Source: Paraglaciecola sp. MB-3u-78
GTDB taxonomy: Bacteria > Pseudomonadota > Gammaproteobacteria > Enterobacterales > Alteromonadaceae
DNA length: 64,000 nt
Reading direction: 5' to 3'
NCBI RefSeq assembly: GCF_002835935.1
Contig: NZ_PJCF01000004.1
Coordinates: 124,001-188,000, forward strand
The stretch's first letter is position 1; each line of letters starts with the position of its first letter. The position numbers and the translations under genes were made by a program. This document shows positions 16,202 to 42,577 of the stretch, in pieces. The notes beneath the pieces are model-generated. The model did no database searches, had not been told where the DNA came from, and was given only the letters and a program-made list of their open reading frames with translations.

Positions 16202-16836
16202 TTTAGCTTGTGCCGATTTAAAAGTTATCGGTTTGTATTAAATAGCCAACAATATCATTTGCTAGATGCACTTTAACTCTCCATATTCTGGATAATCAGT
16301 ACCGATTTTTGAAGCGTTCTTAAATGTTTTAAATCGATCTATTAGGTAGCCTTCACAACAATTTTTTCTACTACTCACTCTCAGAATTTGCTCTTAGTGC
16401 CTGCGGTAGTTATCTGATATCAAGCCCTTTCAAATAGATATGTGGCGACCTTATTTGGCTCAATGCTATCCAATCAGTTTCTGCATAACAGACCCTTATT
16501 AGACTAAAGTTCAACATACTAAAGTTCAATTTCGGTTCTCCAATATTAGTTTTATAATCAGTATAGATTTAGGCCCAAATGTTTGTGGTAGATACTCAGA
16601 TATCAAACCTTGTCGTTTTAGAAAATATTCTAAGCGGTATTGACGGCAATTTCATCAAAGCAATCTCTTGATAAGAGGCTTTGTTAATTATGCTCTAAAA
16701 ATGTCAATGACTGAAAGGCAAGCCTTTCCCCATTGGCGGCACTGTTTATTATTTGAAAGCCTACATTAGGATTAGATGCTGGTAACAACATCAATGGAAT
16801 TATTAATAACGTTAATATTTGAATGTAGGAAATATC
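16202..16836. other. intergenic region without recognised gene
   Basis: This 635-bp AT-rich stretch has no convincing reading frame. It holds a short tandem ACTAAAGTTCAA duplication near 16503-16530 and the inverted repeat GAAAGGC-AA-GCCTTTC near 16714. It is probably the promoter region of the PEP-CTERM gene. Confidence 0.4.
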
Positions 16837-17985
16837 ATGAACAGTAAATTATCAAAACTTTTTTTAGGAAGCATATTATTATCTGTCGCAACAGGGTCTT
16901 CAGCAAGCTTATTGCTTGGTCCTGATTTGATCGGTTATTCTGGTGTGTCTGGTGCCGCATTTAATGTAGGAGCAGACGCACTGATAACAAATAATATCGC
17001 AGCATTTGCTGACATTGGTACCGGTGCTGGCTCTACTACCGCTAATCTATCTTCTAGCACCGGCGCCGTTTCTACAGGTGCTGATGGGAGCGCGGGAAAC
17101 ATATATGCCGGCGCTGCCGCAGTTATCGGGGCTCGAGCTGCCGCTGGAGACGTATACTCTGCAGCAGCCATCACAGTAGCCGCTAATAGTACCGCTGGAA
17201 ACGTCTATGCTGCTGCAGCCGTCACTCTTGGCGCGGGTTCGACTACACAAGACGTATATGCCGGAGCAGCTATCACTGGAGTCTCGAAAGGAACCCAAAC
17301 AGCTTTTGCTGTTCCTACTGCTGAACTTAGTTTATATAAAGATTCGTTTGACGTCGACGCTGCTTTAAAACAAATAGGTGATACCCAAGATGCCTTAAAA
17401 AAACTCGATACTGATTTCGCATTGGCTGTGGGTTATGGAAGTACTGTTTTTGAGGCTGGAGTATGGGAAGGAACTGCTGTGACTGTAGCCGCAAACTCAA
17501 TCATTCAATTTGATGGTAAGGGTGAAGAAAACCCTATTTGGGTTTTTAATCTTATTAGCGCTCTAACCTTGGGTACCAATAATAAATTCGAAATAATTAA
17601 CGCCGGCGCAGGGGCAAGTGTCATCTGGAATATAGGCGGTGGGCTAACTATGGGGGCAGGTAGTTCTTTTGTGGGTGCTGCTTTTGTAACAGGAGCTGTA
17701 GCCGCTGCTACATCAGACGTTACTTGCGGAAACTTATTTACGAATACGACGGCCGCCATTGGCATAGGTGATATGATATCTACCAATTGCCTCGGCACAG
17801 ATTCATGGACGGGCTCAATAAATGGGTTAGCTGCGGGCATTGATATTACCGATGGGATTATTTCAAACAAGTCAATAGTAGTAGAAGAGGCTGATCCAGT
17901 ATCAGTCTCTGAGCCATCGACTGGTTTATTGATGTCTAGTTTTGCTTTAATGTTTTTTGCCGGTAGATTAAAACGTCAATCGTAA
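16837..17985 (+). CDS. PEP-CTERM ice-binding-type (DUF3494-like) surface protein
   Basis: ATG 16837 has AGGA 6 bp upstream. The product is 382 residues: a signal peptide (1-24), then from about residue 86 four 17-residue repeats centred on NIY/DVY/NVY/DVY (residues 88, 105, 122, 139) with alternating Ala/Val/Ile expected to form a beta-solenoid. A DUF3494-like domain follows (about 150-330), with WVFNLISALTLGTNNKFEI and VIWNIGGGLTMGAGSSFVG matching the family blocks that pack the ice-binding helix. The C-terminus SEPSTGLLMSS, a hydrophobic segment and RLKRQS is a PEP-CTERM sorting signal, so an exosortase encoded elsewhere should process it. It is probably surface- or matrix-attached. Ice binding is inferred from the family only. 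Confidence 0.75.
   Translation: MNSKLSKLFLGSILLSVATGSSASLLLGPDLIGYSGVSGAAFNVGADALITNNIAAFADIGTGAGSTTANLSSSTGAVSTGADGSAGNIYAGAAAVIGARAAAGDVYSAAAITVAANSTAGNVYAAAAVTLGAGSTTQDVYAGAAITGVSKGTQTAFAVPTAELSLYKDSFDVDAALKQIGDTQDALKKLDTDFALAVGYGSTVFEAGVWEGTAVTVAANSIIQFDGKGEENPIWVFNLISALTLGTNNKFEIINAGAGASVIWNIGGGLTMGAGSSFVGAAFVTGAVAAATSDVTCGNLFTNTTAAIGIGDMISTNCLGTDSWTGSINGLAAGIDITDGIISNKSIVVEEADPVSVSEPSTGLLMSSFALMFFAGRLKRQS
17086..17290 (+). repeat. 51-bp tandem repeats encoding 17-residue solenoid units
   Basis: Four in-frame units of 51 bp encode the pattern (A/T)-G-(N/D)-(V/I)-Y-x-(A/G)-A-A-(V/I)-T. They differ at the DNA level, so they are old rather than freshly duplicated. Confidence 0.7.
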
Positions 17986-18886: not shown

Positions 18887-21040
18887 TCAAAACTGGGCGC
18901 GATAACCGATACTTACAAAGTAACCTGTGGTGGTTCTGTCTATTTCTGAAAATGTTTCATTTAACCATTCATAGCCCAGATCCATCTCAAATTTTAGCCA
19001 CCTCTCATAACGATAATCCAGGCGGATTAAGGGTCTAAGCATCCAACGGTCATCACTGTTTAGTTTGGACTTTCTATAATCCAGTCGCAGCCTTGGATTA
19101 ATTCGGAACTGATTCTTGATATTAAATCGCCAATTTGTATTTAATGTGTGTGTCGTCGAGCGGGTCGAGTCGGAATAACGCCAACTCAGTATCATGGTAT
19201 CTGTATCAAAGGCGACTTTGTTGCCGACTAATTGCACTGAATACATAAATTCGTTGTCACTGGCTGGGTAGCCTTCAATGCCAGCACTGCTTAGCGTTTC
19301 ACCATATTTAGAGTAAGTGACTTCGCCAACCATTTGCCAATCCTGGTTAAATTGATGGGTTAATGAGCTGGTGACAGATTGACTTTTTGCCGTTCGGTCA
19401 CGGGCTAATTGTTGTAATTCATCTTCAGAATATTGCTCTAACAACTGGTCCAGGCTTGATACACCCTGGCCTTGAATGGCATTGTTAGTGGTCAAGATGG
19501 GACTGTTTCTGTAGTCAACAACCACATTTATGTTGTTGCTTTCACTAAAATTCCAATTGCCAATAAACAGAAAAATATTAAGATCATTGAATAGAATATC
19601 GTAATCAATCAGGGTGAAAAGTGACTTCTTGTTATCTCTAAAGCGAATTTCTCCACCCATGGCTTCGCGATCTTTTACCTGATGATTTTGTTGGCTGATA
19701 TAAAAGGCATTGAAATCCCAACCTGTCCAAATTGAACTGATATCAACACTGAGACCCTGAAAATTCACGTTTGAATTGATAGCTGATTTATCTGAATAGT
19801 TGACTGGGTAGCCTAACACAGCATTGATTTGGTAATTGTCATTGACCTCGTAGGCCAGGCGAGCACCATCAAAACGGCCCAGTATGCCTGCTGAATTGAA
19901 TGATTGCCGACCCACTCGTGCATATAAACCTTGTTCACCTAATTTTCCATCAACATAGGCTATGCTGGGGATAAACTCGCTGCCTTTGCCGTCTGTCATA
20001 AGATCGTTGCGGTAGGAGCCAACAAATTGAGTGCCTAATTCCACATTTCCTTTATTCACTTTGGCGACAAAATCGAGGTCACTATTTAGATCAGAGCGTA
20101 TCAACTGACTGCTTTGATCCTCAGGAGTGGTTTCGTCTCGATAGTAGGTTTGAGCAACACTGCCATAAAATTGTGTCTGCCATTCATCATTATTGATTTG
20201 TTTGGAATTTTTGGCGGCCCTGAGTCTTTGCTTGGGTTGTTGAGCCGCTGTGATGATGGCGGCTAGTCGCTGCTTAACGCGAAGGGCGCCCTCACTGTTG
20301 GGATAGTCTTGCAGGTATTGGGTATATTCCGCTTTGGCTTGGGCTAATTGGCCATTAAATTCACGGCTGACACCAATTAATTCCTGAGCTCGTTGTTGCA
20401 CTTCGCCACTGCTTTCGTCCCTTACCTTGCTTAAAAGTCGCACAGCTTTGGAATAATCCTTATCTAACATGCTTTGATTAGCTTGTTGCAGGATTTTGGC
20501 TAGTGCAACATCTTCTTCCTGCAATTTTGCGATCAACAGATCAATGCTGGTGCCCGAACTTGATTGCTGTTGATTGGCTTGCGTTTGCGCTAATTGAGGA
20601 TCAATGACCGAAATGATAACCGCACGTAAATCTTTACTGGCTCGCACATTAAATGTGAGTGCACGTTTAAAGCGTGCGGTAATTCTTGGATTATCAGCGA
20701 GCTCACCGTCATAAGTTAATTCTACTAATGCCGTTGGAATACTGTTATCCCAGCTTAATTCAACACTTTCATTGAGACTGTTATAAAATGTTTGGTCGGC
20801 GATATTTTCTATTTTCAAAAAAATATCAAGGGTTTTAGTCGGCTGTGTTGGTGCATAATTTTGGTAGCGTAAGGGGGTTATAAAATGTATTTCAAGATCA
20901 TACCCCTCGGTTGTAGGCACTACATCTACATTGTCTACTATTTGTGCGCTTAGTGTTTGGCTTATTAAGCCGAACACTAAGGCTGCCCATAATGGTGAGC
21001 AAAGACGCCGTATTTTGACAAGATTTACTAAAATATTCAT
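18887..21040 (-). CDS. outer-membrane beta-barrel protein with periplasmic TPR region
   Basis: ATG 21040 is preferred over ATG 21046, because the AGGT at 21047-21050 then has proper spacing; 717 residues. After a signal peptide ending in LSAQ there is an all-beta AMIN-like region (about 35-150), a helical TPR-type stretch (about 165-265, KAVRLLSKVRDES ... AKAEYTQYLQDYPNSEGALRV), and from about residue 290 to the end alternating polar/hydrophobic strands with the final residues GYRAQF, a typical barrel ending in Phe. It is the last gene of the cytochrome operon, 9 bp after the 32-heme gene. By context it should be the outer-membrane sleeve or partner of the cytochromes, comparable in role to MtrB/PioB, but it has no CXXC near the N-terminus and no visible similarity to MtrB. 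Confidence 0.7.
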   Translation of the reverse strand: MNILVNLVKIRRLCSPLWAALVFGLISQTLSAQIVDNVDVVPTTEGYDLEIHFITPLRYQNYAPTQPTKTLDIFLKIENIADQTFYNSLNESVELSWDNSIPTALVELTYDGELADNPRITARFKRALTFNVRASKDLRAVIISVIDPQLAQTQANQQQSSSGTSIDLLIAKLQEEDVALAKILQQANQSMLDKDYSKAVRLLSKVRDESSGEVQQRAQELIGVSREFNGQLAQAKAEYTQYLQDYPNSEGALRVKQRLAAIITAAQQPKQRLRAAKNSKQINNDEWQTQFYGSVAQTYYRDETTPEDQSSQLIRSDLNSDLDFVAKVNKGNVELGTQFVGSYRNDLMTDGKGSEFIPSIAYVDGKLGEQGLYARVGRQSFNSAGILGRFDGARLAYEVNDNYQINAVLGYPVNYSDKSAINSNVNFQGLSVDISSIWTGWDFNAFYISQQNHQVKDREAMGGEIRFRDNKKSLFTLIDYDILFNDLNIFLFIGNWNFSESNNINVVVDYRNSPILTTNNAIQGQGVSSLDQLLEQYSEDELQQLARDRTAKSQSVTSSLTHQFNQDWQMVGEVTYSKYGETLSSAGIEGYPASDNEFMYSVQLVGNKVAFDTDTMILSWRYSDSTRSTTHTLNTNWRFNIKNQFRINPRLRLDYRKSKLNSDDRWMLRPLIRLDYRYERWLKFEMDLGYEWLNETFSEIDRTTTGYFVSIGYRAQF

Positions 21041-21049
21041 GGCCATACC

Positions 21050-23500
21050 TTAATCAAAATCGCCGTCTGTGGTGCGGTGTTCACTGTTACGCCGTTTCAG
21101 AATGGTGCTCAGCGAAGAGTCGGTATAAACATGGCAGGCACCGGAGCAATCCCTGAGTTCACTAACGGTATAGCGCACCCTGGGGCTATCTATTTTAGTA
21201 TGTTCATCCGACTCATAATCATTTGCATGGCAACCTGCACAATCAGGTTTGTAAGCACTGTTAGGCCAACTTAACACCTGATTATTATTAGTATGACAGT
21301 CATTGCAAGAGACGTTTGAACGATGGTCACCGGGATAAATTGCCGATGAGTGAATAAAGTCGATATTCGACCAATTGTTGTTATTGTGGCAAGTATCACA
21401 CTGTTCAGTCGTTATAAAGTGATTGCTCGGTTTCCCCGTCGCTTGTGAGCCATCATGGCAACTTGAACATGAACCAATAACTGCGTCGTGATTAAAATTT
21501 GCTGGCACCCAGGCAACATTTGTATGACATTCATCACACTCAGCAACAGTTTGCACATGGGTGCTATGTTTACCCGTGGCGGTGCTGCCATTGTGACAAC
21601 TACTGCATGAACCCGTCACGCCAGTATGATCAAATCTGACATCATCCCAACGGGTAGTCACATGGCAATCATCACAGGTGTCTGTGCTGCTAATATGGTT
21701 GGCCGGTTTACCTAAGGCCACAGTATTATTGTGGCAGGAGTTACACGTGCCGTTCACCGAAGCATGATCAACCCGGGCTACCGGTACCCATGCAGTGGTT
21801 AAATGGCAATCTTCACAGATATTATTTGTACTGATGTGCGTGGCATTTTTGCCCGTAGCATCTGAGCCGTTATGACAGGAACTACAGTTACCGGTGACGC
21901 CACTGTGGTCAAAGTTCACCTGATCCCAACTGTTTGTCACATGGCAATCATCACAGGTGTCGGTGCTGCTAATATGGTTGGCCGGTTTACCTAAGGCCAC
22001 AGTATTATTGTGGCAGGAGTTACACGTGCCGTTCACCGAAGCATGATCAACCCGGGCTACTGGTATCCATGCAGTGGTTATATGGCAATCTTCACAGATA
22101 TTATTAGTACTGATGTGCGTGGCATTTTTGCCCGTAGCATCTGAGCCGTTATGGCATGAGCTGCAGTTGTTGCTAACACCGCTGTGGTCAAAATTCACCT
22201 GATCCCAACTGTTTGTCACATGGCAATCATCACAGGTGTCGCTGCTGCTAATATGGTTGGCTTGTTTACCTAAGGCCACCACATTATTATGACAGGAATT
22301 ACATGTACCATTCACCGAAGCATGGTCAACCCGGACTACCGGCACCCATGCAGTGGTTAAATGGCAATCTTCACAGATATTATTAGTACTGATGTGCGTG
22401 GCATTTTTGCCCGTAGCATCTGAGCCGTTATGGCAGGAACTACAATTACCGTTTACAGCGTTGTGATCAAAATTCACCTGATCCCAAGTATAAGTCACAT
22501 GGCAATCATCACAGGTGTCGGTGCTGCTAATATGGTTGGCTGGTTTACCTAAGGCCACCACATTATTATGACAGGAATTACATGTACCGTTCACCGAAGC
22601 ATGGTCAACCCGGACTACCGGCACCCAGGCATTGGTTAAATGGCAATCTTCACAGATATTATTAGTATTGATGTGCGTGGCATTTTTGCCCGTAGCATCT
22701 GAGCCGTTATGGCAGGAACTACAACTACCGTTTACAGCGTTGTGATCAAAATTCACATGATCCCAAGTACTTGTCACATGGCAATCATCACAAGTATCGG
22801 TGCTATTGATATGACTCGTATTTTTACCCAGTGCAACCACATTGTTATGGCATGAACTGCAAGTGCCGTTAACCGCAGCATGATCAACCCGAGTAGCAGG
22901 GCTCCATGTTTGTGTTGAGTGGCAGTCTTCGCAGGTATTGGTGGTATTCAAATGACTGACATTTTTACCGCTAGCTACCGAGCCATTGTGACAAGAGGAG
23001 CATTGCGCAACAAGGCCGTCATGATCAAAACGTGCACCTAGCCAGGTTGAAGTAACATGACAATTGTCACAGGTTTCGCCGCTTGAAATATGGTTAGCCG
23101 GTTTGCCTGAGGCCACCACATTGTTGTGACAGGCATTACAACTACCGTAAAGGGAATTATGATCTACACGGGTAACCTGCTCCCAACTGCGCGTGGTGTG
23201 GCAATCTTCACATTGATTAGCACTTGCAATGTGGTTAAGTGGTTTGGCGGTTTGAGCCACACCGCCTTGCATATGGCATGTGGAACATTGTTTTGGCGTT
23301 CCCTTAAATATGCCCGACACATGGCAACTATCACATTGCACTCTTTCATGTTGACCATCTAAGGGGAAACCGGTATTAAAATGATCAAATTCAGTATCAG
23401 CCGCCACTATCTGGGTCGAGAGCAACAGCAAAAACGTGCATAGCAGATATATAATCTGGGGCAATTTTCGAATGTGTGGTAAAGAAAACGCATATTGCAT
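21050..23500 (-). CDS. 32-heme tandem-repeat c-type cytochrome
   Basis: The product is 816 residues: a signal peptide (1-34, ending IVAA), then 31 CXXCH motifs plus one final CX3CH (CSGACH near residue 785). The motifs are spaced 23-24 residues apart through most of the chain. Two alternating half-units are seen, CxxCHNGSxATGKxATH and CxxCHxTxxWxxVxFDH, and two pairs make a 93-residue, four-heme repeat. Each CXXCH is followed 12-13 residues later by one other His, the number needed for bis-His ligation of every heme. At about 25 residues per heme it is among the densest arrangements possible. It should be an exported electron carrier or wire. The start has AAGGA upstream, inside the end of the 21-heme gene. 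Confidence 0.9.
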   Translation of the reverse strand: MQYAFSLPHIRKLPQIIYLLCTFLLLLSTQIVAADTEFDHFNTGFPLDGQHERVQCDSCHVSGIFKGTPKQCSTCHMQGGVAQTAKPLNHIASANQCEDCHTTRSWEQVTRVDHNSLYGSCNACHNNVVASGKPANHISSGETCDNCHVTSTWLGARFDHDGLVAQCSSCHNGSVASGKNVSHLNTTNTCEDCHSTQTWSPATRVDHAAVNGTCSSCHNNVVALGKNTSHINSTDTCDDCHVTSTWDHVNFDHNAVNGSCSSCHNGSDATGKNATHINTNNICEDCHLTNAWVPVVRVDHASVNGTCNSCHNNVVALGKPANHISSTDTCDDCHVTYTWDQVNFDHNAVNGNCSSCHNGSDATGKNATHISTNNICEDCHLTTAWVPVVRVDHASVNGTCNSCHNNVVALGKQANHISSSDTCDDCHVTNSWDQVNFDHSGVSNNCSSCHNGSDATGKNATHISTNNICEDCHITTAWIPVARVDHASVNGTCNSCHNNTVALGKPANHISSTDTCDDCHVTNSWDQVNFDHSGVTGNCSSCHNGSDATGKNATHISTNNICEDCHLTTAWVPVARVDHASVNGTCNSCHNNTVALGKPANHISSTDTCDDCHVTTRWDDVRFDHTGVTGSCSSCHNGSTATGKHSTHVQTVAECDECHTNVAWVPANFNHDAVIGSCSSCHDGSQATGKPSNHFITTEQCDTCHNNNNWSNIDFIHSSAIYPGDHRSNVSCNDCHTNNNQVLSWPNSAYKPDCAGCHANDYESDEHTKIDSPRVRYTVSELRDCSGACHVYTDSSLSTILKRRNSEHRTTDGDFD
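21378..23080 (-). repeat. 279-bp tandem DNA repeats inside the 32-heme gene
   Basis: The block around GTCACATGGCAATCATCACA recurs exactly every 279 bp (plus-strand positions 21657, 21936, 22215, 22494, 22773), with more diverged units in register at about 21378 and 23052. Some neighbouring units, notably those between about 21660 and 22440, differ by only a few bases, including at third codon positions, so they were recently duplicated or homogenised. Confidence 0.9.
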
Positions 23501-23501
23501 A

Positions 23502-25082
23502 TTATTTTATCCTTATCTCAGCAAATCCAGTTGCAATGTGGCAGCTTTGACAGTTTTGCCCAAAGCGTCCCTGATGTTTGTCGTCTTGGGCATGACAGGC
23601 GTAACAGGCGCTATCTTGCTCAACTTTTTCATCTGCGATAGTGCTATGGCATGCGCTACAAGTGAGTCCCTGGTGAGCGCCTTCAAGGGGAAACTGGGTT
23701 TGTGTACTATGATCGAATTGCCACAGCAGCCAATCGTTAGGATTATGACAAGAGGCGCAGTCGCTACCTAAGGTACGCTCATGGAAATCGTCATTTTCAT
23801 GGCAATTTATACAAGTGCTAGGAGCATCGTGAAACTGTGGGCTTGCATGGCATGATTCGCAGGTCGCAATGGAATGCATGCCCACCAGAGGAAAATTAGA
23901 TAACTCATGGTCAAATCTAACTTGTTTACCCCAATCTGAATCATTGTGGCAGGTATCACATTTGTTACCTAGTTGCCCTTTGTGTGCATCATCTTTGCTG
24001 TGACAATCAATACAGCTATTTCTGCTGAGTTTATTGTTGCTACCAAGCTGGTGGCAACTGGCACAGCTTAAGTCGCTGTGCTTACCGTGAAGCTTAAATT
24101 CAGTATCTGCATTATGATCAAAATCGGTTTCCGCCCATTTTGTTTCGGAATGACAGACTTTGCAGTTAGTGCCATTTAGTCCACGATGTTGATCATCATG
24201 CTTATGGCAATCAACACAGGTGTTTGCTGGTTTTTCATCAAACACAGGGCCACTATGGCAGGCATTACAACTGACATTGATATGGCTACCTATTAAGGCA
24301 AAGTCAGTGTCGTCGTTATGGTCAAAAATAAGCTTCTGCCAATTTTTTTGCTGATGACAACTTTTACAGTCTTTGCCATTAATACCCCCATGCACGTCGT
24401 TGAGAATATGACAAGAAACACACTTTTGCGGTGTACCAATATATTTTTGATCTGGGTGACATGCGTTGCAACTCGTCTGCTGATGTTTGCCAAGTAAAGC
24501 AAAGTTTGTACTATCGTGATCAAAGGAGGACTCGTCCCATTTTTGTGTGGAGTGACAATCGGCACAGCTCTCTTCAAATACGCCATTATGTTTGTCATCT
24601 TTTAAATGGCAACCCACACACTCTTTAGGGGTATCTCTGAATTTTTTATTGTCTGCGTGGCAACTCTGGCAAACGACAACTCTGTGACTGCCGTCTAACT
24701 TGAAATCTGTCACCGCGTGATCAAAATGGTCGACATCAAAATTAACAATATCACCGTCTCGGCCAATGTGCTCAGAGTGACAGGCCTGACATTCTGCGTC
24801 TTTTACCGCCATCGAACGGCCATGAAAACCCAGCGATCCCTGCAGATCTTTTGCTACTTCTTTATGGCAATCTAAACACAGACTTTTAGAGGACGTATCA
24901 GTTGACGAGCCATGACAACTATCACATTTATGCTCAAATTTTGCATGGGTTTGATGAAGATCCCCGGGCATCAACAATTTTTTAAGTGAAAAGTCCTGTT
25001 CTTGCCCATGGGCAGCAAAACTGAGTATCAATACCTGTAGCAACAAAACATATTGGAAATTGATGAGGTATCTTTTAAACAT
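23502..25082 (-). CDS. 21-heme c-type cytochrome (doubled-CXXCH / cytochrome c3-like)
   Basis: The product is 526 residues with a signal peptide (1-26, ending AAHG) and 21 CXXCH motifs. From about residue 125 the chain is built of 67-residue units with three hemes each: F-x-L-x-G-x-H, CxxCH, CxxCH-x-x-(D/N)D-x-H-x-G, CxxCH, W, FDH. Each unit has three non-CXXCH His residues, again fitting bis-His ligation. The N-terminal part (CDSCH, CLDCH, CQACHSEHIGRDG) resembles the entry modules of cytochrome c3 family proteins. It is probably periplasmic, taking electrons from the membrane b-type protein encoded upstream and passing them to the 32-heme protein. The stop lies 2 bp from the start of the 32-heme gene. 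Confidence 0.9.
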   Translation of the reverse strand: MFKRYLINFQYVLLLQVLILSFAAHGQEQDFSLKKLLMPGDLHQTHAKFEHKCDSCHGSSTDTSSKSLCLDCHKEVAKDLQGSLGFHGRSMAVKDAECQACHSEHIGRDGDIVNFDVDHFDHAVTDFKLDGSHRVVVCQSCHADNKKFRDTPKECVGCHLKDDKHNGVFEESCADCHSTQKWDESSFDHDSTNFALLGKHQQTSCNACHPDQKYIGTPQKCVSCHILNDVHGGINGKDCKSCHQQKNWQKLIFDHNDDTDFALIGSHINVSCNACHSGPVFDEKPANTCVDCHKHDDQHRGLNGTNCKVCHSETKWAETDFDHNADTEFKLHGKHSDLSCASCHQLGSNNKLSRNSCIDCHSKDDAHKGQLGNKCDTCHNDSDWGKQVRFDHELSNFPLVGMHSIATCESCHASPQFHDAPSTCINCHENDDFHERTLGSDCASCHNPNDWLLWQFDHSTQTQFPLEGAHQGLTCSACHSTIADEKVEQDSACYACHAQDDKHQGRFGQNCQSCHIATGFAEIRIK

Positions 25083-25132
25083 AGGTTTACAGTCTCAGCC
25101 GGATAACTAAGTTAAAAAACAACTTAGTTAGC

Positions 25133-25996
25133 TTAGTATCTGTGTACAGCATAAACATGAACAAAGCCTGTAATCACTAACATGAAGAATATTGGCATAT
25201 GTAATAAATGCCAAAGGGAGAATAAACGTTCGTAAAAAGCAAGATTTGCTATCTTTCTCACCGCCTGCAAATAGTCAAGAAGATGGCAGATGGTGTCAGT
25301 ATTAACCGCTGCGGTTTTCATTTCTCGTTTAATGCGTCTTTGTGCAAAGCGCGTTGTTAAACTCAATGACATGCTGGTTGATAAACTACCCAACACAGTA
25401 TTCACTTTTTGCAGTTTTTGTTCGCAATGTTGAATTATTTTCAACTGTTCTGGTGTCAGTGAGTGAGCAGATAGAGCCGCATCATCAATTTGTTCGCGGG
25501 CTAAAATTTTGCTGTGCAATAGCTCTTTCAACTGAATTTTATTGCCATAAAGACCATAGTGAATTTTACCGTAAATAAAACGCCCAAAAAGTCCACTGCT
25601 GACCATCAGCAACATACTGGCTAAGGTAATATTACTGTTAGTTGAACCCATACTGAAATTGCAGTGAAACAGCACTAATAAAGGGCCCAGGATACCCAAC
25701 ATCATATGGATGCGGAACCAATTTCTTGTAGAAAAAATTAACAGTCTTGAGTTATAGAAGCGTTTTCTAAGGGGATAAATAAGCAGCAGTAGCATCATTG
25801 AGCCACCAACAATACCGAGCGCGTATCCCAACCCAGATTGCGCAGTGATAAAATACTCGTCGCGTATTTGCCAACCAAAATAAAGTAGCAACAAGATTAA
25901 AATTGAAAATAACACTACAGGTAAATTGATCTTGGCTTTTGGCTTATCAGCATTAATTTTTTGAGCACGTTTGCTGGGTTCGATGGCCTGGTTCAT
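25133..25996 (-). CDS. membrane b-type cytochrome-like protein of the cytochrome operon
   Basis: The product is 287 residues with five clear hydrophobic helices (about 24-44, 55-76, 95-113, 122-141 and 262-284) and a cytoplasmic-looking helical loop between the fourth and fifth. Paired His residues in helices (His97 and His111; His263, His266 and His280) are placed as in di-heme b-type cytochromes of the ferric-reductase or cytochrome b561 kind. It has no FAD- or NAD-binding domain, so electrons must come from another protein; the divergent Fe-S/FAD gene is an obvious candidate. It sits 50 bp upstream of the 21-heme gene and 5 bp after the TPR gene. Heme binding is inferred. Confidence 0.65.
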   Translation of the reverse strand: MNQAIEPSKRAQKINADKPKAKINLPVVLFSILILLLLYFGWQIRDEYFITAQSGLGYALGIVGGSMMLLLLIYPLRKRFYNSRLLIFSTRNWFRIHMMLGILGPLLVLFHCNFSMGSTNSNITLASMLLMVSSGLFGRFIYGKIHYGLYGNKIQLKELLHSKILAREQIDDAALSAHSLTPEQLKIIQHCEQKLQKVNTVLGSLSTSMSLSLTTRFAQRRIKREMKTAAVNTDTICHLLDYLQAVRKIANLAFYERLFSLWHLLHMPIFFMLVITGFVHVYAVHRY

Positions 25997-26001
25997 GGTG
26001 T

Positions 26002-26871
26002 TTAACCTTGACTCTTAGCAGCGAAGACATTGGAGATAACTAAACTGACTGTCGGTTGCGTAGCAGTAGAAACAGCTTGTGATATTTCTTCAATATCGCC
26101 AGCTTGCTTAACAGGGTTGCCAGATATTGCCAGTCGAGCGCCGACTACTACTTGTTCTGTACTGCTAATATTGTGGTCAGGCAGCATTGCCATTTGATCG
26201 TTCAAGGCAATATACAGCGGTAAGTCCCGCACTTGTTTCCGAACTGCTGCTAAAGGGGGACCCGCTACTATCTGTTGATTAATGTAAGGCCTGACAAAAA
26301 TGAACACAGTCGTATCGGGAGAGACAGTTTGAGTCAGTGCTTCAGAAAGCGATACGCGCAGTAAGATTGAGCCCGTGTTTTTAGCAATTGAGTGGGTCTT
26401 AGCTCTGCCTGAATTTTTGCTCTTTGTGGTATTTTTGACTAAATAATTTTGCAGCAAATCATTCATAGGCAGGGGAGTCGATAATTGATCAACTGGGTTA
26501 GGTTTGCGACTGGCATCCGTCTGTGCCACGTCAAGCGTGCCTTTGAAACCGAGGGCTTGTGCTTTTTCTAGGGCTGATTGTGCGGCGCTATCTCGTTGTA
26601 AATAACGATAGGACTTGGCCAACAATAACCAACCTTGCATGTTGTCAGGTTGGTTTTGCAACTTCTGTTCAAGATTAGCCAATAAATCTTCAACTGACGC
26701 TGCTTGTTTGTTTTGCTGAGCCGATGGCGTTTTAACATCCATTGTCTGTTTGTTTTGTTCAGCGCTAACTAATTGATTGTCTGAAGTGGTACTCAGCCAA
26801 AAAACTAGCGCGCTGATGATAACGACTAACACAACAGTAAAAATAACTGTGCGACTTTTGAATGCTTGCAT
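26002..26871 (-). CDS. CcmH/NrfG-type TPR protein, cytochrome c biogenesis
   Basis: ATG 26871 is chosen; an in-frame TTG at 26889 is less likely. The product is 289 residues with an N-terminal membrane anchor (VIFTVVLVVIISALVFW), a TPR region (about 60-120: LANLEQKLQNQPDNMQGWLLLAKSY) and a C-terminal beta domain (LLRVSLSEAL ... TVFIFVRP ... LPLYIALND ... VVVGARLAISGNPVKQAGD). This architecture is that of the C-terminal half of CcmI/CycH, which presents apocytochrome to the heme lyase. As the first gene of the unit it is probably a dedicated maturation factor for the 53-heme load. The general Ccm genes are not in the window. Confidence 0.8.
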   Translation of the reverse strand: MQAFKSRTVIFTVVLVVIISALVFWLSTTSDNQLVSAEQNKQTMDVKTPSAQQNKQAASVEDLLANLEQKLQNQPDNMQGWLLLAKSYRYLQRDSAAQSALEKAQALGFKGTLDVAQTDASRKPNPVDQLSTPLPMNDLLQNYLVKNTTKSKNSGRAKTHSIAKNTGSILLRVSLSEALTQTVSPDTTVFIFVRPYINQQIVAGPPLAAVRKQVRDLPLYIALNDQMAMLPDHNISSTEQVVVGARLAISGNPVKQAGDIEEISQAVSTATQPTVSLVISNVFAAKSQG

Positions 26872-26983
26872 CGGGTGACCGTTCCTCAAAATATTTGACA
26901 GTTTAGACCTACACGGGAAAATCCAATACCTTACAGATAAAAGCTTTAAAACAGTTTATTGCAAAGTAATACCAAACTAACTT

Positions 26984-27024
26984 TACTCACGTTAACTTAA
27001 GGAACACTTAAGTTAACGTGAGTA
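26984..27024. promoter_or_regulatory. 41-bp perfect palindrome in the divergent promoter region
   Basis: TACTCACGTTAACTTAAG, the 5-base loop GAACA and the exact reverse complement make an 18-bp-arm inverted repeat. Weaker complementarity continues outwards (GCAAAGTAATAC and GTATTGC). It lies midway between the minus-strand cytochrome operon and the plus-strand Fe-S/FAD gene and has no T-tract, so a double operator or an inserted palindromic unit is more likely than a terminator. Confidence 0.6.
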
Positions 27025-27167
27025 GTATTGCAGAATATCTGGATGAAAAGGGATGTGATCTTATACTTGGTTAAATATTACGGCATTGTAAATGAGCAGA
27101 ATGATAGACAAAGTAATAAAGATGTCGGTCATTTTGTAGACAAAATATTTGTTAACTTAGAGTAATT

Positions 27168-28487
27168 ATGGCGTTTTTACAGGACTATCCAATTTTCGCT
27201 TATCTTATGCCCATGGTATTTATTTGGTGCATCTTCATTGTCATAAAACGGCGAAAAAACAATCAGGCCTTACAATTGCAACAACAAGCAACCGAATCAG
27301 GTTTGACTGAGCCTGCCAGTTTGCATCCCATCATTGATCCTAATCTTTGTTTAGGCTGTGGTGCATGCACAAGAGCCTGTCCCGAAGGAAATGTGCTGGG
27401 TTTAATTAACGGTAAAGCGCAGTTAATTCAACCTTCTAATTGCATCGGTCATGGTGCTTGTAAAGCGTCCTGCCCTACTAATGCCATCACCTTAGTTTTT
27501 GGTACCGAAACGCGAGGCGTGGACATACCCACTCTTAGCCCTAATTTTGAAACCAATGTTGCTGGCATATTTATCGCGGGTGAGCTGGGCGGTATGGGAT
27601 TAATCAGGAACGCGGTTGAACAGGGTTCTCAAGCGGCTAGCGAAGTTACCAAGCTTGTGCGTCAACTTAAATGGGCACCTGAAGACATGTTAGATGTCGT
27701 TGTGGTTGGTGCAGGTCCGGCAGGCATTGCGGCCTCCTTAAGTGCAAAACAAGATAATTTGAACTTTGTCACCATCGAACAAGATTCGTTGGGGGGCACA
27801 GTCTCTCATTTTCCGCGCAATAAAATTGTGATGACAGCCCCGGTCAATTTACCGCTAGTGGGTAAAGTTAAGTTTCGTGAAACTAGCAAAGAAGCCTTAT
27901 TGGAATTTTGGCAAAACATCATTGAAAAAACCGCTCTTAAAATCAATTTTGATGAACGCCTAGAAGATATTGAGACCTTAAAGGTCGGTTTTAAACTCAC
28001 TACTAACAAGGGGCAGTATTTTACTAAAACGGTACTGCTTGGTCTTGGACGCAGAGGCACCCCCAGAACCTTAAATGTGGAGGGCGAAGCATTACCCAAA
28101 GTAGTCTATCGACTCATTGATCCTGGGCAATATACAGGACAAAAAGTACTCGTTGTTGGCGGCGGTGACAGTGCCTTAGAAGCCGCAACCAGTATTGCTG
28201 AGCAAGCGGGAAGCCACGTGATTTTGTCTTACAGGTCTGATTCGTTTAATCGTGCGAAAAGTAAAAACAGGCAAAAAGTTGAGCAAGCCGAACGTCAAGG
28301 TCAACTGACGGTGATGCTGCGCTCGTCAGTAAAAAAAATCAGTCCTGATGACGTGGTCATTGAGCAAGACGGTAAGCAAGCCTGCTTTGCAAATGATGCG
28401 GTTATCGTCTGTGCCGGTGGTATTTTGCCAACCCCATTTTTGCAAAAAATAGGCATTTCAATCGAGACTAAACATGGCTCAGAGTAA
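27168..28487 (+). CDS. membrane-anchored 2x[4Fe-4S] / FAD / NAD(P) oxidoreductase
   Basis: The product is 439 residues. A membrane helix (about 8-26) and a basic stop precede a ferredoxin-like domain with Cys61, 64, 67, 71 (CLGCGACTRACPE) and a second set Cys92, 98, 102 in which the expected second Cys is His95 (CIGHGACKASCP). A thioredoxin-reductase-like domain follows: FAD-binding VVVVGAGPAGIAAS (177-190), NAD(P)-binding VLVVGGGDSALEA (327-339) and a C-terminal ATG-like motif VIVCAGG. No redox CxxC of true thioredoxin reductases is present, so the electrons probably leave by the Fe-S clusters. It is divergent from the cytochrome operon and is the natural NAD(P)H entry point for it. Direction of electron flow is inferred. 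Confidence 0.8.
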   Translation: MAFLQDYPIFAYLMPMVFIWCIFIVIKRRKNNQALQLQQQATESGLTEPASLHPIIDPNLCLGCGACTRACPEGNVLGLINGKAQLIQPSNCIGHGACKASCPTNAITLVFGTETRGVDIPTLSPNFETNVAGIFIAGELGGMGLIRNAVEQGSQAASEVTKLVRQLKWAPEDMLDVVVVGAGPAGIAASLSAKQDNLNFVTIEQDSLGGTVSHFPRNKIVMTAPVNLPLVGKVKFRETSKEALLEFWQNIIEKTALKINFDERLEDIETLKVGFKLTTNKGQYFTKTVLLGLGRRGTPRTLNVEGEALPKVVYRLIDPGQYTGQKVLVVGGGDSALEAATSIAEQAGSHVILSYRSDSFNRAKSKNRQKVEQAERQGQLTVMLRSSVKKISPDDVVIEQDGKQACFANDAVIVCAGGILPTPFLQKIGISIETKHGSE

Positions 28488-30495
28488 TACTTTTGTGTCT
28501 GCTTTTAACAAAGTAATTTTAATGCTTGCTGTGTGCTGTATAAGCCTATCTGGGTTCACTCAGACAGTCTCAGAGGCAAAATTTGCCATCAGGACACGAG
28601 ATTTTCAGCAAGCATTAAGCTTGCTCATACCTTTAGCAAAACAGGATGATGCAGAGGCGCAATATTTATTAGGGGCTCTTTACGCCGCCGGTAAAGGCAT
28701 AAGTCGTGATGACAATGCAGCTTTTCGTTGGTTTAGCGCCGCAGCAATACAAGGGCACGGTCAGGCTCAGTTTGAACTTGCTTGTTTATATGAGCAGGGC
28801 GATGGTACCGCGCAGAATATCCAACAGGCCTTAGTGTGGTATCAAAAAGCCAGTGAAAATGGCGTGTATAAGGCAAACAAGAAAATTGACGCAATTAAAG
28901 CTAATCAAAGCAAACATGAGCAAGGCCAAGCAATAGGGCAAGGTACTGTATTTGCGGCAATTCATAAACAAAATTTGACACAATTAAAATTATTGCTTAC
29001 ATCAAGTTCTCTGGCAAATGTCGTTGATTCCAATGGTTATTCAGCATTAATGCGGGCAATTGAAACGAACAACTTTAAGGTAGTGGCACTGTTGCTGCAA
29101 AGTGGCGCCAAGGTGGATTTTTTGGGGCCACAAAAAATTACGCCGCTTATTCAAGCCGTAGAATTAAAAAACAATGCAATGGTCAAAGTATTATTGCGTT
29201 ATAAGGCCAAGCTTGATCAGCAAGATTCACTGGGTAACAGCGCACTTATTTATGCAACCCGTAAACAGGCAGTTAAATTAGTTGATATGTTGTTGTCTGC
29301 AGGTGCAAATCCAAATTTAGCCAACCTTAGTGCCAACACTGCAATAGATTTTGCCAAATCCCCCTCACTTATTGCCTCACTATTGCTTAAACACGGTGCC
29401 ATCGATCCGCTTTCGTTGGCAAACAAGCAGTTAAATAAACAAGCCATGAGTAAAAATGCTGAATTGTTTGTCGCCAATGTCGCAGAAGATGCACCTTACA
29501 AGGGATGGCCGGTGTTGAATGTAGCGGCATGGCGAGGGCAAATCGATATGCTTAAAGCTTTATTGGCGACTGCTGCTGCCATTGACTCCGTTGATGTTGA
29601 GCACTATACACCTTTGCTCAGAGCAAGCAGGCAAGGTCATGGTGAGGTCGTTGAATTGTTATTAAATAAAGGTGCGGCAATTAACTGGCAGTTGGATGAC
29701 GGGCGCACTGCCTTGTATTTAGCCGTTGAGCAACACCACAGTGCTGTTGTAAGCCTACTATTGCAACACGGAGCTACTATAGAACTTAGTGGCGAGAAAC
29801 TCTATCCGCCCTTACTTTTAGCCGCTAAACAGGGACAAGACGCGATTGCCTTGCAACTGTTAAACGCCGGTGCCAATGCCAATCTTATATTCGATGATCA
29901 CACTGTACTGCATTGGGCGGCGCAATCGGGCATGTTGGATTTAGCGGCAATAGTGATAAAAAAAATTGATAATGTTGATCACCAAAATACGCTTGGCCAG
30001 TCAGCTTTAATGCTGGCTGTCATTAACCATCAACAGCCTTTGGTTGAATTGTTGTTAAAGTTTGGGGCTGATGTCAATTTAACGGACAATAACAATAATA
30101 CCGCGCTGCATCTGGCAGCTAAATCAGGAAAGCGGGCTTTGGTTGCGCTTTTACTACACCACAAGGCAAACATAAATTTACTTAACGAGCAAAACAACAG
30201 TGCCCTTATTGTTGCTGCCAGTAGTGGTTTTGATGACATAGTATTGCTATTGCTTGAACAGGGAGCAGATGGAGGCATTCGTAACAAGGCCAGTTTTACA
30301 GCCTTGATGCTGGCTGCCACTAATGGTCATTTGCAATCCGTTAAACATTTTGTTGGCCATGGAGCCGATCTTGGTCGCCGCAATAAAGACGGCAAAAATG
30401 CCCAAAAATTAGCTAAGGAAGCAGGTCAAAAAGAGATTGCCAACTACCTTGCTAAGCAAAATAAATCATCGAATTTTCTCGACCTGTTCAATTAG
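28474..30495 (+). CDS. exported Sel1 / ankyrin-repeat protein
   Basis: The start overlaps the end of the oxidoreductase gene by 14 bp in another frame, indicating translational coupling. The product is 673 residues: a signal peptide (about 1-30), two Sel1-like repeats (AEAQYLLGALYAAGKGISRDDNAAFRWF, then a second), and about twelve 33-residue ankyrin repeats with the G-x-T/S-A-L-x-x-A and LL-x-x-G-A-D/N motifs. Ankyrin and Sel1 repeats are protein-binding scaffolds. Its coupling to a redox gene divergent from the cytochrome operon suggests a periplasmic assembly or protection role there, but the partner is unknown. Confidence 0.85.
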   Translation: MAQSNTFVSAFNKVILMLAVCCISLSGFTQTVSEAKFAIRTRDFQQALSLLIPLAKQDDAEAQYLLGALYAAGKGISRDDNAAFRWFSAAAIQGHGQAQFELACLYEQGDGTAQNIQQALVWYQKASENGVYKANKKIDAIKANQSKHEQGQAIGQGTVFAAIHKQNLTQLKLLLTSSSLANVVDSNGYSALMRAIETNNFKVVALLLQSGAKVDFLGPQKITPLIQAVELKNNAMVKVLLRYKAKLDQQDSLGNSALIYATRKQAVKLVDMLLSAGANPNLANLSANTAIDFAKSPSLIASLLLKHGAIDPLSLANKQLNKQAMSKNAELFVANVAEDAPYKGWPVLNVAAWRGQIDMLKALLATAAAIDSVDVEHYTPLLRASRQGHGEVVELLLNKGAAINWQLDDGRTALYLAVEQHHSAVVSLLLQHGATIELSGEKLYPPLLLAAKQGQDAIALQLLNAGANANLIFDDHTVLHWAAQSGMLDLAAIVIKKIDNVDHQNTLGQSALMLAVINHQQPLVELLLKFGADVNLTDNNNNTALHLAAKSGKRALVALLLHHKANINLLNEQNNSALIVAASSGFDDIVLLLLEQGADGGIRNKASFTALMLAATNGHLQSVKHFVGHGADLGRRNKDGKNAQKLAKEAGQKEIANYLAKQNKSSNFLDLFN

Positions 30496-31715: not shown

Positions 31716-31946
31716 ATGCAAACAAATATGCATGAAGCAAAAAGTAAACTATCGCAGCTCGTTGAGGCGGCTGTTCTTGGTGAAGAAGTAATTATTGCCA
31801 AGTCAGGCAAGCCTCTTGTCAGGTTAGTGCCTTTTCAACCACATACAAAAAGAGAATTTGGTCTATTGAAAGGTAAGATTAAAATGTCTTCTGATTTTGA
31901 TTCAAAAGAAGTCAATGATGAAATTTCTGAAATGTTTGGTATGTAA
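31716..31946 (+). CDS. Phd/YefM-family antitoxin
   Basis: ATG 31716 gives 76 residues and has AGGG upstream; a TTG 6 bp earlier is in frame. The N-terminus MQTNMHEAKSKLSQLVEAA ... EVIIAKSGKPLVRLVP is the Phd/YefM DNA-binding fold, with KSGKPLVRLVP its most conserved block. The C-terminal tail should wrap the toxin. It overlaps the PIN toxin start as TAATG, a typical coupled module. It neutralises the toxin and represses its own promoter by family knowledge. Confidence 0.9.
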   Translation: MQTNMHEAKSKLSQLVEAAVLGEEVIIAKSGKPLVRLVPFQPHTKREFGLLKGKIKMSSDFDSKEVNDEISEMFGM

Positions 31947-32332
31947 TGAAAAGAATATTATTAGATACCCACACATTAATTTGGTGGATGAATGGTGATC
32001 AAGCTTTAGGTGAATTTGCTCTTGAGTTTATAGCAAACGAAAATAACCAAGTTTATGTTAGTGCCGCCTCTGTCTGGGAGATGTCGATAAAACGACAACT
32101 TGGCAAATTAGAGTGCCCTGTAGATTTAGACTCTGTGATTGAAAGTCTGGGATTTAGTAAGTTGCCAATATCTATTTTTCATAGCGAACAAGCTGGCCAA
32201 TTGCCAATACATCATAAGGACCCTTTTGACAGAATGCTAATCGCACAAGCGCAGGCAGAGGGTTTGCAAATTATAACAAAAGATGAACACTTTCCTTCTT
32301 ACGGAATAAGTTTAATCGACGCCACAAAATGA
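31946..32332 (+). CDS. PIN-domain toxin (VapC-like)
   Basis: The product is 128 residues. The acidic residues of the PIN ribonuclease site are visible: Asp7 in LLDTHTLIWW, Glu in SVWEMSIK, Asp in HKDPFDRML and Asp in TKDEHF. This subgroup is regularly paired with Phd/YefM antitoxins, as here. It is expected to cut RNA. All catalytic positions are intact, so the module may be active. Confidence 0.9.
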   Translation: MKRILLDTHTLIWWMNGDQALGEFALEFIANENNQVYVSAASVWEMSIKRQLGKLECPVDLDSVIESLGFSKLPISIFHSEQAGQLPIHHKDPFDRMLIAQAQAEGLQIITKDEHFPSYGISLIDATK

Positions 32333-41727: not shown

Positions 41728-42528
41728 TTAATAATGCAGTGTAAAATAATCGCCTAACTGTTTTAAGGTATACCCACCACTTTGATAGGCCTTGCAGATA
41801 GCCGTATTGCGATCCTCACTGTTAGCCAGGTAATAATCGAGTGTGTCTGGTGTAGGTTTTCTTTGGGCTGATGGTATCTCGCTTAGCTTCTGGTCTTCAT
41901 CAATTAAACGTTGCATGTTGTCGATGAATTGCTGGTCCCCCCAAATAAATTTGTTTACGCAGTGAAGACCAAAGTGATGGCTGGCCTTTTCTCTGGGCAA
42001 TAAACTGTTTATAACGCTCAATCGCCTCGGCCTTATTTTGGGCAAAGTTTGCCAATAGCCAATCAGTAAACAAGCGGGCCAGTTGCTTTGTCCTGCAGTC
42101 GACAAATAGCTACTCCATGGCCAATCAGCCGCCAAAGACACCATGTTGGCGCGCACGGGATTTAAAACATTATAGCGCACCAGCTCAAGCAGGTAGCTGT
42201 TTTTTTCTATGAGAATGGATTTATACCGGCCCTGAAATACATGTCCGACTCGATTCTGGGCACGGTTAAACGATTGTGTGTAAACGCCATTTAGTTGTCG
42301 CATACCTTTTGACAGATTAGCATTGGGGGTTTCAATAAGAAGGTGATAGTGGTTGTCCATGAGGCAATAAGCGTGACATGCCCAATTACAAATATCACTG
42401 GTCTTGTCTAAAATAGATAAAAATGATGCGCGATCGGTATCGTCCTCATAGATATCCTCCCGGCGGTCTCCCCTTGAGGTAATGTGATACAGAGCCCCCG
42501 CAAATTCCAAACGTAATGGTCTAGACAT
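41728..42528 (-). CDS. REP-associated tyrosine transposase (RAYT), with compensating frameshifts
   Basis: ATG 42528 has GGAGA upstream and gives MSRPLRLEFAGALYHITSRG, the standard RAYT start; 266 residues. The Y1 domain has the HUH motif NHYHLL and the catalytic Tyr region LVRYNVLNPVRANM. Between about 42065 and 41941 the reading frame gives residues unlike the family (GYWQTLPKIRPRR, then REKASHHFGLHCVNKF). A neighbouring frame of the same bases encodes the expected WLLANFAQNKAEAIERYKQF, then SLRKQIYLG. Thus one base was lost near 42065 and one G gained in the G6 run (41937-41942), leaving about 40 scrambled residues. It may be inactive. Confidence 0.85.
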   Translation of the reverse strand: MSRPLRLEFAGALYHITSRGDRREDIYEDDTDRASFLSILDKTSDICNWACHAYCLMDNHYHLLIETPNANLSKGMRQLNGVYTQSFNRAQNRVGHVFQGRYKSILIEKNSYLLELVRYNVLNPVRANMVSLAADWPWSSYLSTAGQSNWPACLLIGYWQTLPKIRPRRLSVINSLLPREKASHHFGLHCVNKFIWGDQQFIDNMQRLIDEDQKLSEIPSAQRKPTPDTLDYYLANSEDRNTAICKAYQSGGYTLKQLGDYFTLHY

Positions 42529-42577
42529 GGAAAGTATCTCCAAAAATCCTTTTAATAGAGGTTAGGCGAGAATTAAT

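What the first reader, a model, noticed from the sequence alone, without database searches (positions are those of the whole stretch)
18887..30495. A 53-heme electron-conduit locus with its own cytochrome maturation and NAD(P)H-side modules
Seen: five minus-strand genes (CcmH-type TPR, His-rich membrane protein, 21 CXXCH, 31 CXXCH plus one CX3CH, outer-membrane barrel) packed with gaps of 1-50 bp, and two plus-strand genes (2x[4Fe-4S]/FAD/NAD(P) protein, Sel1/ankyrin) divergent from them. Known: porin-cytochrome complexes (MtrABC, PioAB) and multiheme nanowires carry electrons across the outer membrane. Inference: this is a full route NAD(P)H - FAD/Fe-S - membrane heme b - periplasmic 21-heme - 32-heme - surface. 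The gene set does not match Mtr, Pio, Omb/Omc or Cyc2 layouts that I know.
Basis: partly seen in the sequence, partly recalled or inferred. Interest (0 to 1): 0.85.

Follow-up and report, generated by a model that had tools for sequence, protein, structure and literature searches.

The report
Heme wire across the cell envelope
This is a set of genes for a chain of more than fifty hemes that probably carries electrons through a bacterium's envelope; the type (PCC3) has been known since 2017, but comparing genomes shows that a flavin/iron-sulfur protein nearly always travels with it, which suggests where the electrons enter or leave the cell.

Summary
In detail: an outer-membrane barrel, a 31-CXXCH + 1-CX3CH cytochrome, a 21-CXXCH cytochrome, a 5-TM di-heme-b-type membrane protein (IMP), a CcmI/NrfG-like protein, and a divergent pair (FAD/2x[4Fe-4S]/NAD(P) protein; exported Sel1/ankyrin protein). 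The layout is not new: barrel, two cytochromes and IMP are the porin-cytochrome complex "PCC3" of He et al. 2017, and every sequence hallmark tested is met. Added here: (1) the FAD/Fe-S gene is present in 41 of 41 class genomes with a strong IMP hit (2 FAD-only of 369) and follows IMP copy number, although the PCC3 passages I read list four genes; (2) it looks like a circularly permuted YpdA/thioredoxin-reductase-like flavoprotein with an invariant His in its second cluster motif; (3) the wires grow in modules (three hemes periplasmic, two in the large cytochrome) between conserved caps; (4) two split systems, a short capped "plug" plus a separate lipoprotein-like cytochrome, suggest how the long cytochrome threads the barrel. 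Function of PCC3 is unverified in print; direction is unknown. I favour NAD(P)H-side coupling over a purely quinone-linked iron oxidase, without excluding the latter.

The parts
18887..21046 (-). Outer-membrane beta-barrel (PCC3 porin), 719 aa: N-terminal beta domain (about 37-148), TPR-like helices (168-280), 22-strand barrel (290-718), C-terminal Phe
   Evidence: AlphaFold2 mean pLDDT 86; Foldseek to porins, E 7e-12; TPR_6 22.8 bits, below its cut-off; homologs at E<=1e-8 in 46 of 369 class genomes
21050..23500 (-). Large (presumed extracellular) multiheme cytochrome, 816 aa, 31 CXXCH + C-terminal CX3CH; N-cap FDHxxTGFPL, 2-heme repeats, C-cap SELRDCSGACH
23502..25082 (-). Periplasmic multiheme cytochrome, 526 aa, 21 CXXCH in 3-heme modules
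25133..25996 (-). Inner-membrane protein (PCC3 IMP), 5 TM, W93x3H97x13H111, SGLFG 134-138, W262x3H266x13H280, large loop 146-257 (cytoplasmic by charge)
26002..26889 (-). CcmI/NrfG-like membrane-anchored TPR + Ig_CycH protein, probable apocytochrome chaperone
   Evidence: PF23892 E 6e-26; hydrophobic segment 7-37
27168..28487 (+). Membrane-anchored 2x[4Fe-4S] + FAD/NAD(P) oxidoreductase; apparently circularly permuted YpdA/thioredoxin-reductase-like domain; second cluster motif CxxHxxCxxxC
28474..30495 (+). Sel1 + ankyrin-repeat protein with N-terminal hydrophobic segment (signal-peptide-like), second gene of the divergent pair
26984..27024 (.). Perfect 18-bp inverted repeat (5-nt loop) in the 278-bp divergent intergenic region; possible operator or hairpin

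Best explanation
The locus encodes a PCC3-type electron conduit that spans the whole envelope. Membership of PCC3 is shown by sequence features; the flow is inferred. A flavoprotein anchored on the cytoplasmic face of the inner membrane exchanges electrons with NAD(P)H through FAD and two Fe-S clusters. It passes them to two b-hemes in the 5-TM IMP, whose 110-residue cytoplasmic loop could dock it. The IMP hands electrons to the 21-heme periplasmic wire. The CcmI/NrfG-like protein helps mature the apocytochromes, and the exported Sel1/ankyrin protein probably helps assembly. Net flow from NAD(P)H outward is thermodynamically the easier direction, towards metal oxides, humics, oxygen or a partner cell; the reverse is not excluded.
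For: PCC3 hallmarks. Co-occurrence: of 369 class genomes, 41 of 41 with IMP E<=1e-20 have the FAD gene at E<=1e-60, 2 have FAD only; the 5 genomes with two IMP loci are the same 5 with two FAD genes; 41 of 46 IMP/FAD pairs share a contig, all within 12 kb. Barrel present in 39 of 41. In 80 named loci FAD is in 70, and in 26 of 27 with at least 8 kb on both sides. FAD-domain topology: in 79 of 82 homologs with a predicted TM the charge after it is more positive than before, so the domain is cytoplasmic; the IMP loop 146-257 is rich in K/R too. No CXXC is conserved in the flavin domain; apart from one Cys kept in 69% (residue 415), the conserved Cys are cluster ligands. Plug model: N-cap in 57 of 60 by pattern, with the other three visible; short capped cytochromes of 7-11 hemes in 6 of 40 complete cases, two of them (L106, L118) with a separate lipoprotein-like cytochrome after the barrel. 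The own genome has no RuBisCO and no NapC/CymA match, with controls ringing.
Against: No experiment. Foldseek found no significant solved fold for the IMP (best E 0.12), so heme-b binding and an NADPH-oxidase-like role rest on motifs. Quinone coupling, the published model, is not excluded. In Sideroxydans CL21 the IMP of PCC3 copy 2 was significantly upregulated in cells able to oxidise iron, which favours an iron-oxidation role. 20 genomes with weak IMP-like hits (E 1e-18 to 1e-3) lack the FAD gene; I treat them as other IMP-like proteins, but one of them, G191, also carries barrel matches, so a PCC3 without the flavoprotein may exist. The Fisher value ignores phylogeny, the 1e-20 cut was set after seeing the hits, and only a few first-look candidates per genome were scored (4 per genome). 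IMP and FAD are not fused in any of the 80 loci.
Confidence: 0.5

Rival explanations
1. Published model: PCC3 takes electrons from Fe(II), minerals or other outside donors inward and the IMP passes them to the quinone pool; the FAD/Fe-S and ankyrin genes are accessory (for example regulation, or reductant for biogenesis).
For: He et al. 2017 model and IMP likeness to quinone-reactive cytochrome b; PCC3 is reported in iron-oxidizing Gallionellaceae and Leptothrix relatives; the IMP of PCC3 copy 2 of Sideroxydans CL21 is upregulated in iron-oxidising cells.
Against: Both PCC3 clusters of S. lithotrophicus ES-1 are downregulated on Fe(II), and one of its PCC3 extracellular cytochromes (Slit_1448) is at zero in the eight columns of the proteome passage seen. 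The flavoprotein is as constant as the IMP itself. The window genome lacks RuBisCO.
Confidence: 0.33
2. The FAD/Fe-S, ankyrin and TPR proteins form a biogenesis module that keeps apocytochrome thiols or heme reduced and builds the wire in the barrel; they do not lie on the electron path.
For: The CcmI/NrfG-like gene is in the cytochrome operon; the flavoprotein's nearest solved relatives include thiol-disulfide reductases; the ankyrin partner has a signal-peptide-like N terminus and follows the flavoprotein gene closely in 58 of 60 loci.
Against: The flavoprotein has no conserved CXXC in its flavin domain, its domain is cytoplasmic by charge, and the general heme lyase CcmF is elsewhere. Two conserved Fe-S motifs point to one-electron transfer.
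Confidence: 0.12
3. The cytochromes are a periplasmic electron store (capacitor) and the barrel serves another purpose.
For: Very high heme density (about 25 residues per heme) would suit storage; the large cytochrome has an ordinary-looking signal peptide without lipobox.
Against: Barrel and cytochromes stay adjacent across classes; two split systems put surplus hemes into a lipoprotein-like protein encoded after the barrel.
Confidence: 0.05

Closest known systems
PCC3 porin-cytochrome cluster (He et al. 2017, PMC5566968)
   Same: Porin, extracellular cytochrome (published median 34 hemes; here 31-32), periplasmic cytochrome (median 21; here 21), about 300-aa IMP with two WX3HX13H and SGXXG, same set of genes side by side, about 25 residues per heme.
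   Different: The paper's main text names four components and has no hit for FAD, pyridine nucleotide, TPR, tetratricopeptide or ankyrin; supplements and figure images were not readable here.
MtrCAB / MtoAB / PioAB
   Same: Outer-membrane barrel next to multiheme cytochromes; weak cytochrome-level similarity (TIGR03508 155 bits, below its cut-off; PDB chain 6r2q_A E 5e-4, recalled as the MtrCAB structure though the listing names the molecule otherwise).
   Different: Barrel gives no TIGR03509 hit; predicted 22 strands (MtrB has 26, recalled); much larger cytochromes; own IMP in place of CymA.
NADPH oxidase / ferric reductase (FRD) family
   Same: Two HX13H heme-b motifs on helices 3 and 5 plus a cytoplasmic FAD/NAD(P) partner, so it may work alike.
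   Different: No Ferric_reduct (PF01794) hit for the window's IMP; partner is a separate YpdA/TrxR-like protein with Fe-S motifs, not an FNR-type fused domain (recalled for NOX).
YpdA / thioredoxin-reductase / FNR-like flavoproteins
   Same: Residues of about 170-435 align to YpdA (7a7b, profile E 3e-42).
   Different: The segment that should follow the NAD(P) domain lies before the FAD domain (apparent circular permutation), N-terminal TM and two [4Fe-4S] motifs added, no conserved CXXC in the flavin domain.

Membership tests
PCC3 | Beta-barrel outer-membrane protein next to the cytochrome genes | tested here: met
PCC3 | Periplasmic cytochrome with about 21 hemes | tested here: met
   21 CXXCH; 54 of 69 complete homologs have 21
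PCC3 | Second cytochrome with many hemes, 22-39 residues per heme | tested here: met
   816 aa, 31-32 hemes, about 26 per heme
PCC3 | IMP of about 300 aa, 5 TM, WX3HX13H on TM3 and TM5, SGXXG on TM4 | tested here: met
PCC3 | IMP, periplasmic cytochrome, large cytochrome and porin genes side by side | tested here: met
PCC3 | Large cytochrome is outside the cell | not testable with these tools
   indirect only: two split systems with a lipobox-like cytochrome
PCC3 | Carries electrons across the outer membrane | not testable with these tools
   functionally unverified also in print (passages)
MtrB/PioB barrel family | Match to TIGR03509 | tested here: not met
   no hit for the barrel at E 0.01
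NADPH oxidase / ferric reductase | FRD domain PF01794 | tested here: not met
   no hit for the window's IMP; for the 70 homologs it is not among the 25 families shown of 49 matched at E<=1
NADPH oxidase / ferric reductase | Fold match of the membrane domain | tested here: inconclusive
   Foldseek best E 0.12, unrelated proteins in the 50 rows shown
Thioredoxin reductase | Redox-active CXXC in the NADPH domain | tested here: not met
   no Cys of the window protein in residues 103-405 and no conserved Cys listed there
CcmI/NrfG apocytochrome chaperone | TPR plus Ig_CycH domain, membrane anchor | tested here: met
   PF23892 E 6e-26; PF23914 E 2e-7 but below its cut-off; hydrophobic N-terminal segment

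The most novel reading that the evidence does not exclude
PCC3 is not an iron oxidase but a bacterial counterpart of NADPH oxidase built across two membranes: a circularly permuted flavo-iron-sulfur protein with a conserved His in the second cluster motif feeds NAD(P)H electrons through a two-heme-b membrane protein into a modular heme wire whose length is set in whole 2- and 3-heme units, reducing metal oxides, humics or oxygen outside the cell.
Probability: 0.28. Interest if true: 0.75.

Novelty: new member of a known kind. Interest (0 to 1): 0.5.

Why it matters
PCC3 is proposed as a possible iron oxidase in many genomes, yet its function is untested in the passages read here and its expression in ES-1 does not follow Fe(II). 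If the FAD/Fe-S flavoprotein is a constant part, the missing cytoplasmic end of the path becomes a testable protein, and the direction question (NAD(P)H out, or quinone in) can be settled by one deletion and one enzyme assay. The modular heme counts and the natural split systems give rules for building long protein wires.

Tried and rejected
Rejected: chance CXXCH (52 motifs in two adjacent ORFs). Rejected: an MtrAB/MtoAB barrel (no TIGR03509 hit). Rejected: a complete dedicated maturation system (only one chaperone-like gene; CcmF on contig C23). Inconclusive: absence of MtrB-type barrels from the own genome (no control rang). Led nowhere: Foldseek for the IMP; the search for an empty site in five same-genus genomes (in 20-kb stretches only the 15479-16201 gene is shared next to the locus, plus a 36%-identity match of the 50049-51383 gene in four of the five), so horizontal gain versus loss is not decided, though the FAD gene is in only 3 of 147 family genomes, own included, and IMP hits are in 8 of 295 order genomes, four of them strong, own included. 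The TPR profile matches 34 of 80 loci but also picks up TPR proteins elsewhere, so only the 14 of 80 directly upstream same-strand cases are used. Rows set aside before counts: 20 genomes with weak IMP hits (E 1e-18 to 1e-3), none with the FAD gene (with them the overlap is 41 of 61). Loci L004-L039 were in the ORF set from which the HMMs were built but were left out of the 80-locus tables. Of the 80 loci 20 had no second plus-strand cytochrome after the IMP in the held DNA, and 20 of the remaining 60 were cut by a contig or locus end. The 80 loci are the best 80 of 438 by IMP similarity. PF22600, DUF and T4SS-effector hits I take for low-complexity or repeat artefacts.
Full report
What is there. 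Seven ORFs fill 18887-30495. On the minus strand, in transcription order: CcmI/NrfG-like protein (26889-26002), membrane protein (25996-25133), 21-CXXCH cytochrome (25082-23502), 31-CXXCH + CX3CH cytochrome (23500-21050), barrel (21046-18887), with gaps of 5, 50, 1 and 3 bp. On the plus strand an FAD/Fe-S protein (27168-28487) and a Sel1/ankyrin protein (28474-30495) overlap by 14 bp. Motif counts were recomputed: 52 CXXCH in all, plus one CX3CH.

What it is. He et al. 2017 (PMC5566968; I read the abstract, sections 15 and 16, and passages) described 'PCC3': a porin, an extracellular cytochrome (median 34 hemes), a periplasmic cytochrome (median 21) and a roughly 300-aa inner-membrane protein with five helices, two WX3HX13H motifs on helices 3 and 5 and SGXXG on helix 4. 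The window's membrane protein has W93x3H97x13H111, SGLFG at 134-138 and W262x3H266x13H280, and in a 70-sequence alignment these His and Trp are invariant. So the locus is a PCC3 cluster.

Is the neighbourhood conserved? One scan of the genome-contig collection with an IMP profile gave 438 relatives; the best 80 were held. In those loci (L040-L119) I detected homologs by HMMs built from hits among the ORFs of the 116 loci then held: FAD/Fe-S in 70 of 80 (26 of 27 with at least 8 kb on both sides), ankyrin in 62 of 80 (23 of 27), barrel in 46 of 80 (25 of 27). The ankyrin gene follows the FAD gene on the same strand within 300 bp in 58 of 60 loci that have both. The FAD gene lies upstream of the IMP on the opposite strand in 61 of 70, upstream on the same strand in six, and downstream in three, so it changes place but stays linked. 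The CcmI/NrfG-like gene is directly upstream of the IMP on the same strand in 14 of 80 only.

Independent test. In 369 genomes of the class, IMP hits with E<=1e-20 occur in 41; all 41 also have the FAD/Fe-S gene (E<=1e-60); two have the FAD gene only (G098; G178, which is 72% complete and carries a barrel match on the same contig); 326 have neither (Fisher p 2e-52, not corrected for phylogeny; the cut was set after seeing the hits). With every IMP hit to E 1e-3 counted, the overlap is 41 of 61; the 20 weak hits have no FAD gene, and one of them (G191) has barrel matches. The five genomes with two strong IMP loci (G033, G036, G101, G301, G318) are the five with two FAD genes. Of 46 IMP/FAD pairs 41 share a contig, all within 12 kb. 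The barrel is present in 39 of 41, and in seven further genomes without a strong IMP hit. By these measures the flavoprotein is as constant a part as the porin. The main text of He et al. has no occurrence of FAD, pyridine nucleotide, TPR, tetratricopeptide, ankyrin or maturation. Searches for PCC3 with multiheme and FAD, and for multiheme cytochrome with porin and ankyrin repeat, gave one and no papers; in the one paper (PMC10734462) the passages shown do not tie a flavoprotein to PCC3. Supplements and figures could not be read, so I do not claim that it is absent from print.

The flavoprotein. Sequence: a TM helix (in 82 of 87 homologs by hydropathy; charge after it more positive than before in 79 of the 82, so the rest is cytoplasmic), two [4Fe-4S] motifs, then an FAD/NAD(P) domain. 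The second cluster motif reads C92-I-G-H95-G-A-C98-x3-C102; His95 is present in 87 of 87, where a ferredoxin would have Cys (the comparison is from general knowledge). The FAD/NAD(P) domain aligns to YpdA (7a7b) residues 3-271 (profile E 3e-42). The segment before it (residues 108-172) looks like the piece that should come after: alone, it hits the part behind the NAD(P) domain in 6 of 11 PDB matches, the other five being designed proteins by their names (E 0.025 and weaker for the six); as a profile of 39 sequences 19 of 20 matches are pyridine-nucleotide flavoenzymes, best E 3e-4; and in the full-length search profile 122-138 aligns to YpdA 277-293, though with only 1 bit. I read this as a circular permutation; no structure was predicted for it. 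The flavin domain lacks a conserved CXXC, so it is not a dithiol reductase of the thioredoxin-reductase type.

The wires. Complete first cytochromes carry 21 (54), 18 (11), 24 (3) or 22 (1) CXXCH among 69: multiples of three in 68, with 3-heme spacing of about 33-17-18. Complete second cytochromes carry 7 to 73 CXXCH; the number is odd in 39 of 40 (exception L048 with 24). The N-cap FDHxxTGFxL...CxxCH...CxxCH is found by pattern in 57 of 60, and the remaining three show it in the printed sequences. A C-terminal CX3CH or CX4CH is in 31 of 40. So length appears to change by 2-heme units between fixed ends; in the window 4.4 copies of a 279-bp, 4-heme repeat are visible in the DNA. These counts share ancestry and are not independent trials.

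Topology from split systems. Six of 40 complete second cytochromes are short (7-11 CXXCH) and have the N-cap but no C-cap. In two of these loci (L106, L118) a further cytochrome with 19 or more (cut off) or 36 CXXCH follows the barrel; both begin with a lipobox-like LxxGC signal, and the L118 protein ends in a CX4CH. In the other four no further multiheme ORF was seen after the barrel in the held DNA. Three long ones (L048, L082, L087) also lack the C-cap, so the cap is not required for length. The simplest reading is that the N-cap plus 7-11 hemes is the part inside the barrel, and the rest, fused here, is outside.

Barrel and IMP models. AlphaFold2 gives the barrel 22 strands with an N-terminal beta domain and TPR-like helices; Foldseek's top matches are outer-membrane barrels (porins, ushers), and MtrB is not named in the 50 rows shown. 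The IMP model is confident (pLDDT 87.7) but has no significant solved relative by fold. Loop charges put its N terminus, the TM2-3 loop and the 146-257 loop in the cytoplasm, so H97/H266 lie toward the cytoplasm and H111/H280 toward the periplasm (inference).

Physiology. The own genome (6.48 Mb, 87 contigs) has no RuBisCO large subunit and no NapC/CymA match, with controls ringing. Of six decaheme-family hits in it, all below cut-off, the four best are the locus itself and two weak ones lie elsewhere. It has CcmF. In its family the FAD gene is in 3 of 147 genomes, own included, and in none of the five same-genus genomes listed. In print: ES-1 PCC3 clusters go down on Fe(II) (PMC8788666, passages); one ES-1 extracellular PCC3 cytochrome is at zero in the proteome passage (PMC12016527, passages); in CL21 both PCC3 copies are expressed above the mean and the IMP of copy 2 rises with iron-oxidising ability, while PCC3 is called functionally unverified (PMC12442390, passages). 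PCC3 is also reported in Gallionellaceae and in Leptothrix relatives (PMC10734462, PMC13386937, passages).

Mechanism. Shown: gene content, motifs, linkage, predicted folds of barrel and IMP. Inferred: NAD(P)H to FAD to Fe-S to heme b to 21 hemes to 32 hemes to the outside. Outward flow from NAD(P)H is downhill for most outside acceptors and along the membrane potential (general knowledge); inward flow to NAD(P)+ would need energy. The published alternative, inward flow to quinone, remains open. I give the NAD(P)H-coupled model 0.5 and the quinone model 0.33.

Verdict. A typical PCC3 cluster, a known kind with unknown function. The part worth a second look is the constant, apparently permuted flavo-iron-sulfur protein and the rules of wire length.

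Noticed in passing
26984-27024: Perfect 18-bp inverted repeat with a 5-nt loop in the divergent intergenic region; the arm occurs nowhere else in the window at up to 3 mismatches (0 of 100 shuffles reach two matches); among the 141 loci only two copies of the window's own stretch match.
   Followed up: partly
L103 12481-20825: Bradyrhizobium sp. BR13661 PCC3 cytochrome ORF with at least 98 CXXCH in 2781 aa, cut by the locus end; He et al. report 85 as the most they found.
   Followed up: no
L112, L114: PCC3 variants in which barrel and a 19-CXXCH cytochrome are on the opposite strand downstream of the periplasmic cytochrome.
   Followed up: no
16819-17985: Ice-binding-like protein (PF11999, E 2e-14) with a C-terminal hydrophobic stretch and basic tail like a sorting signal (recalled likeness).
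   Followed up: no
31946-32332 and 41728-42543: PIN-domain protein and IS200-like (Y1) transposase near the locus.
   Followed up: no
G000 whole genome: 6.48 Mb against 4.2-5.3 Mb for the five same-genus genomes listed; the PCC3 FAD gene is absent from those five.
   Followed up: partly
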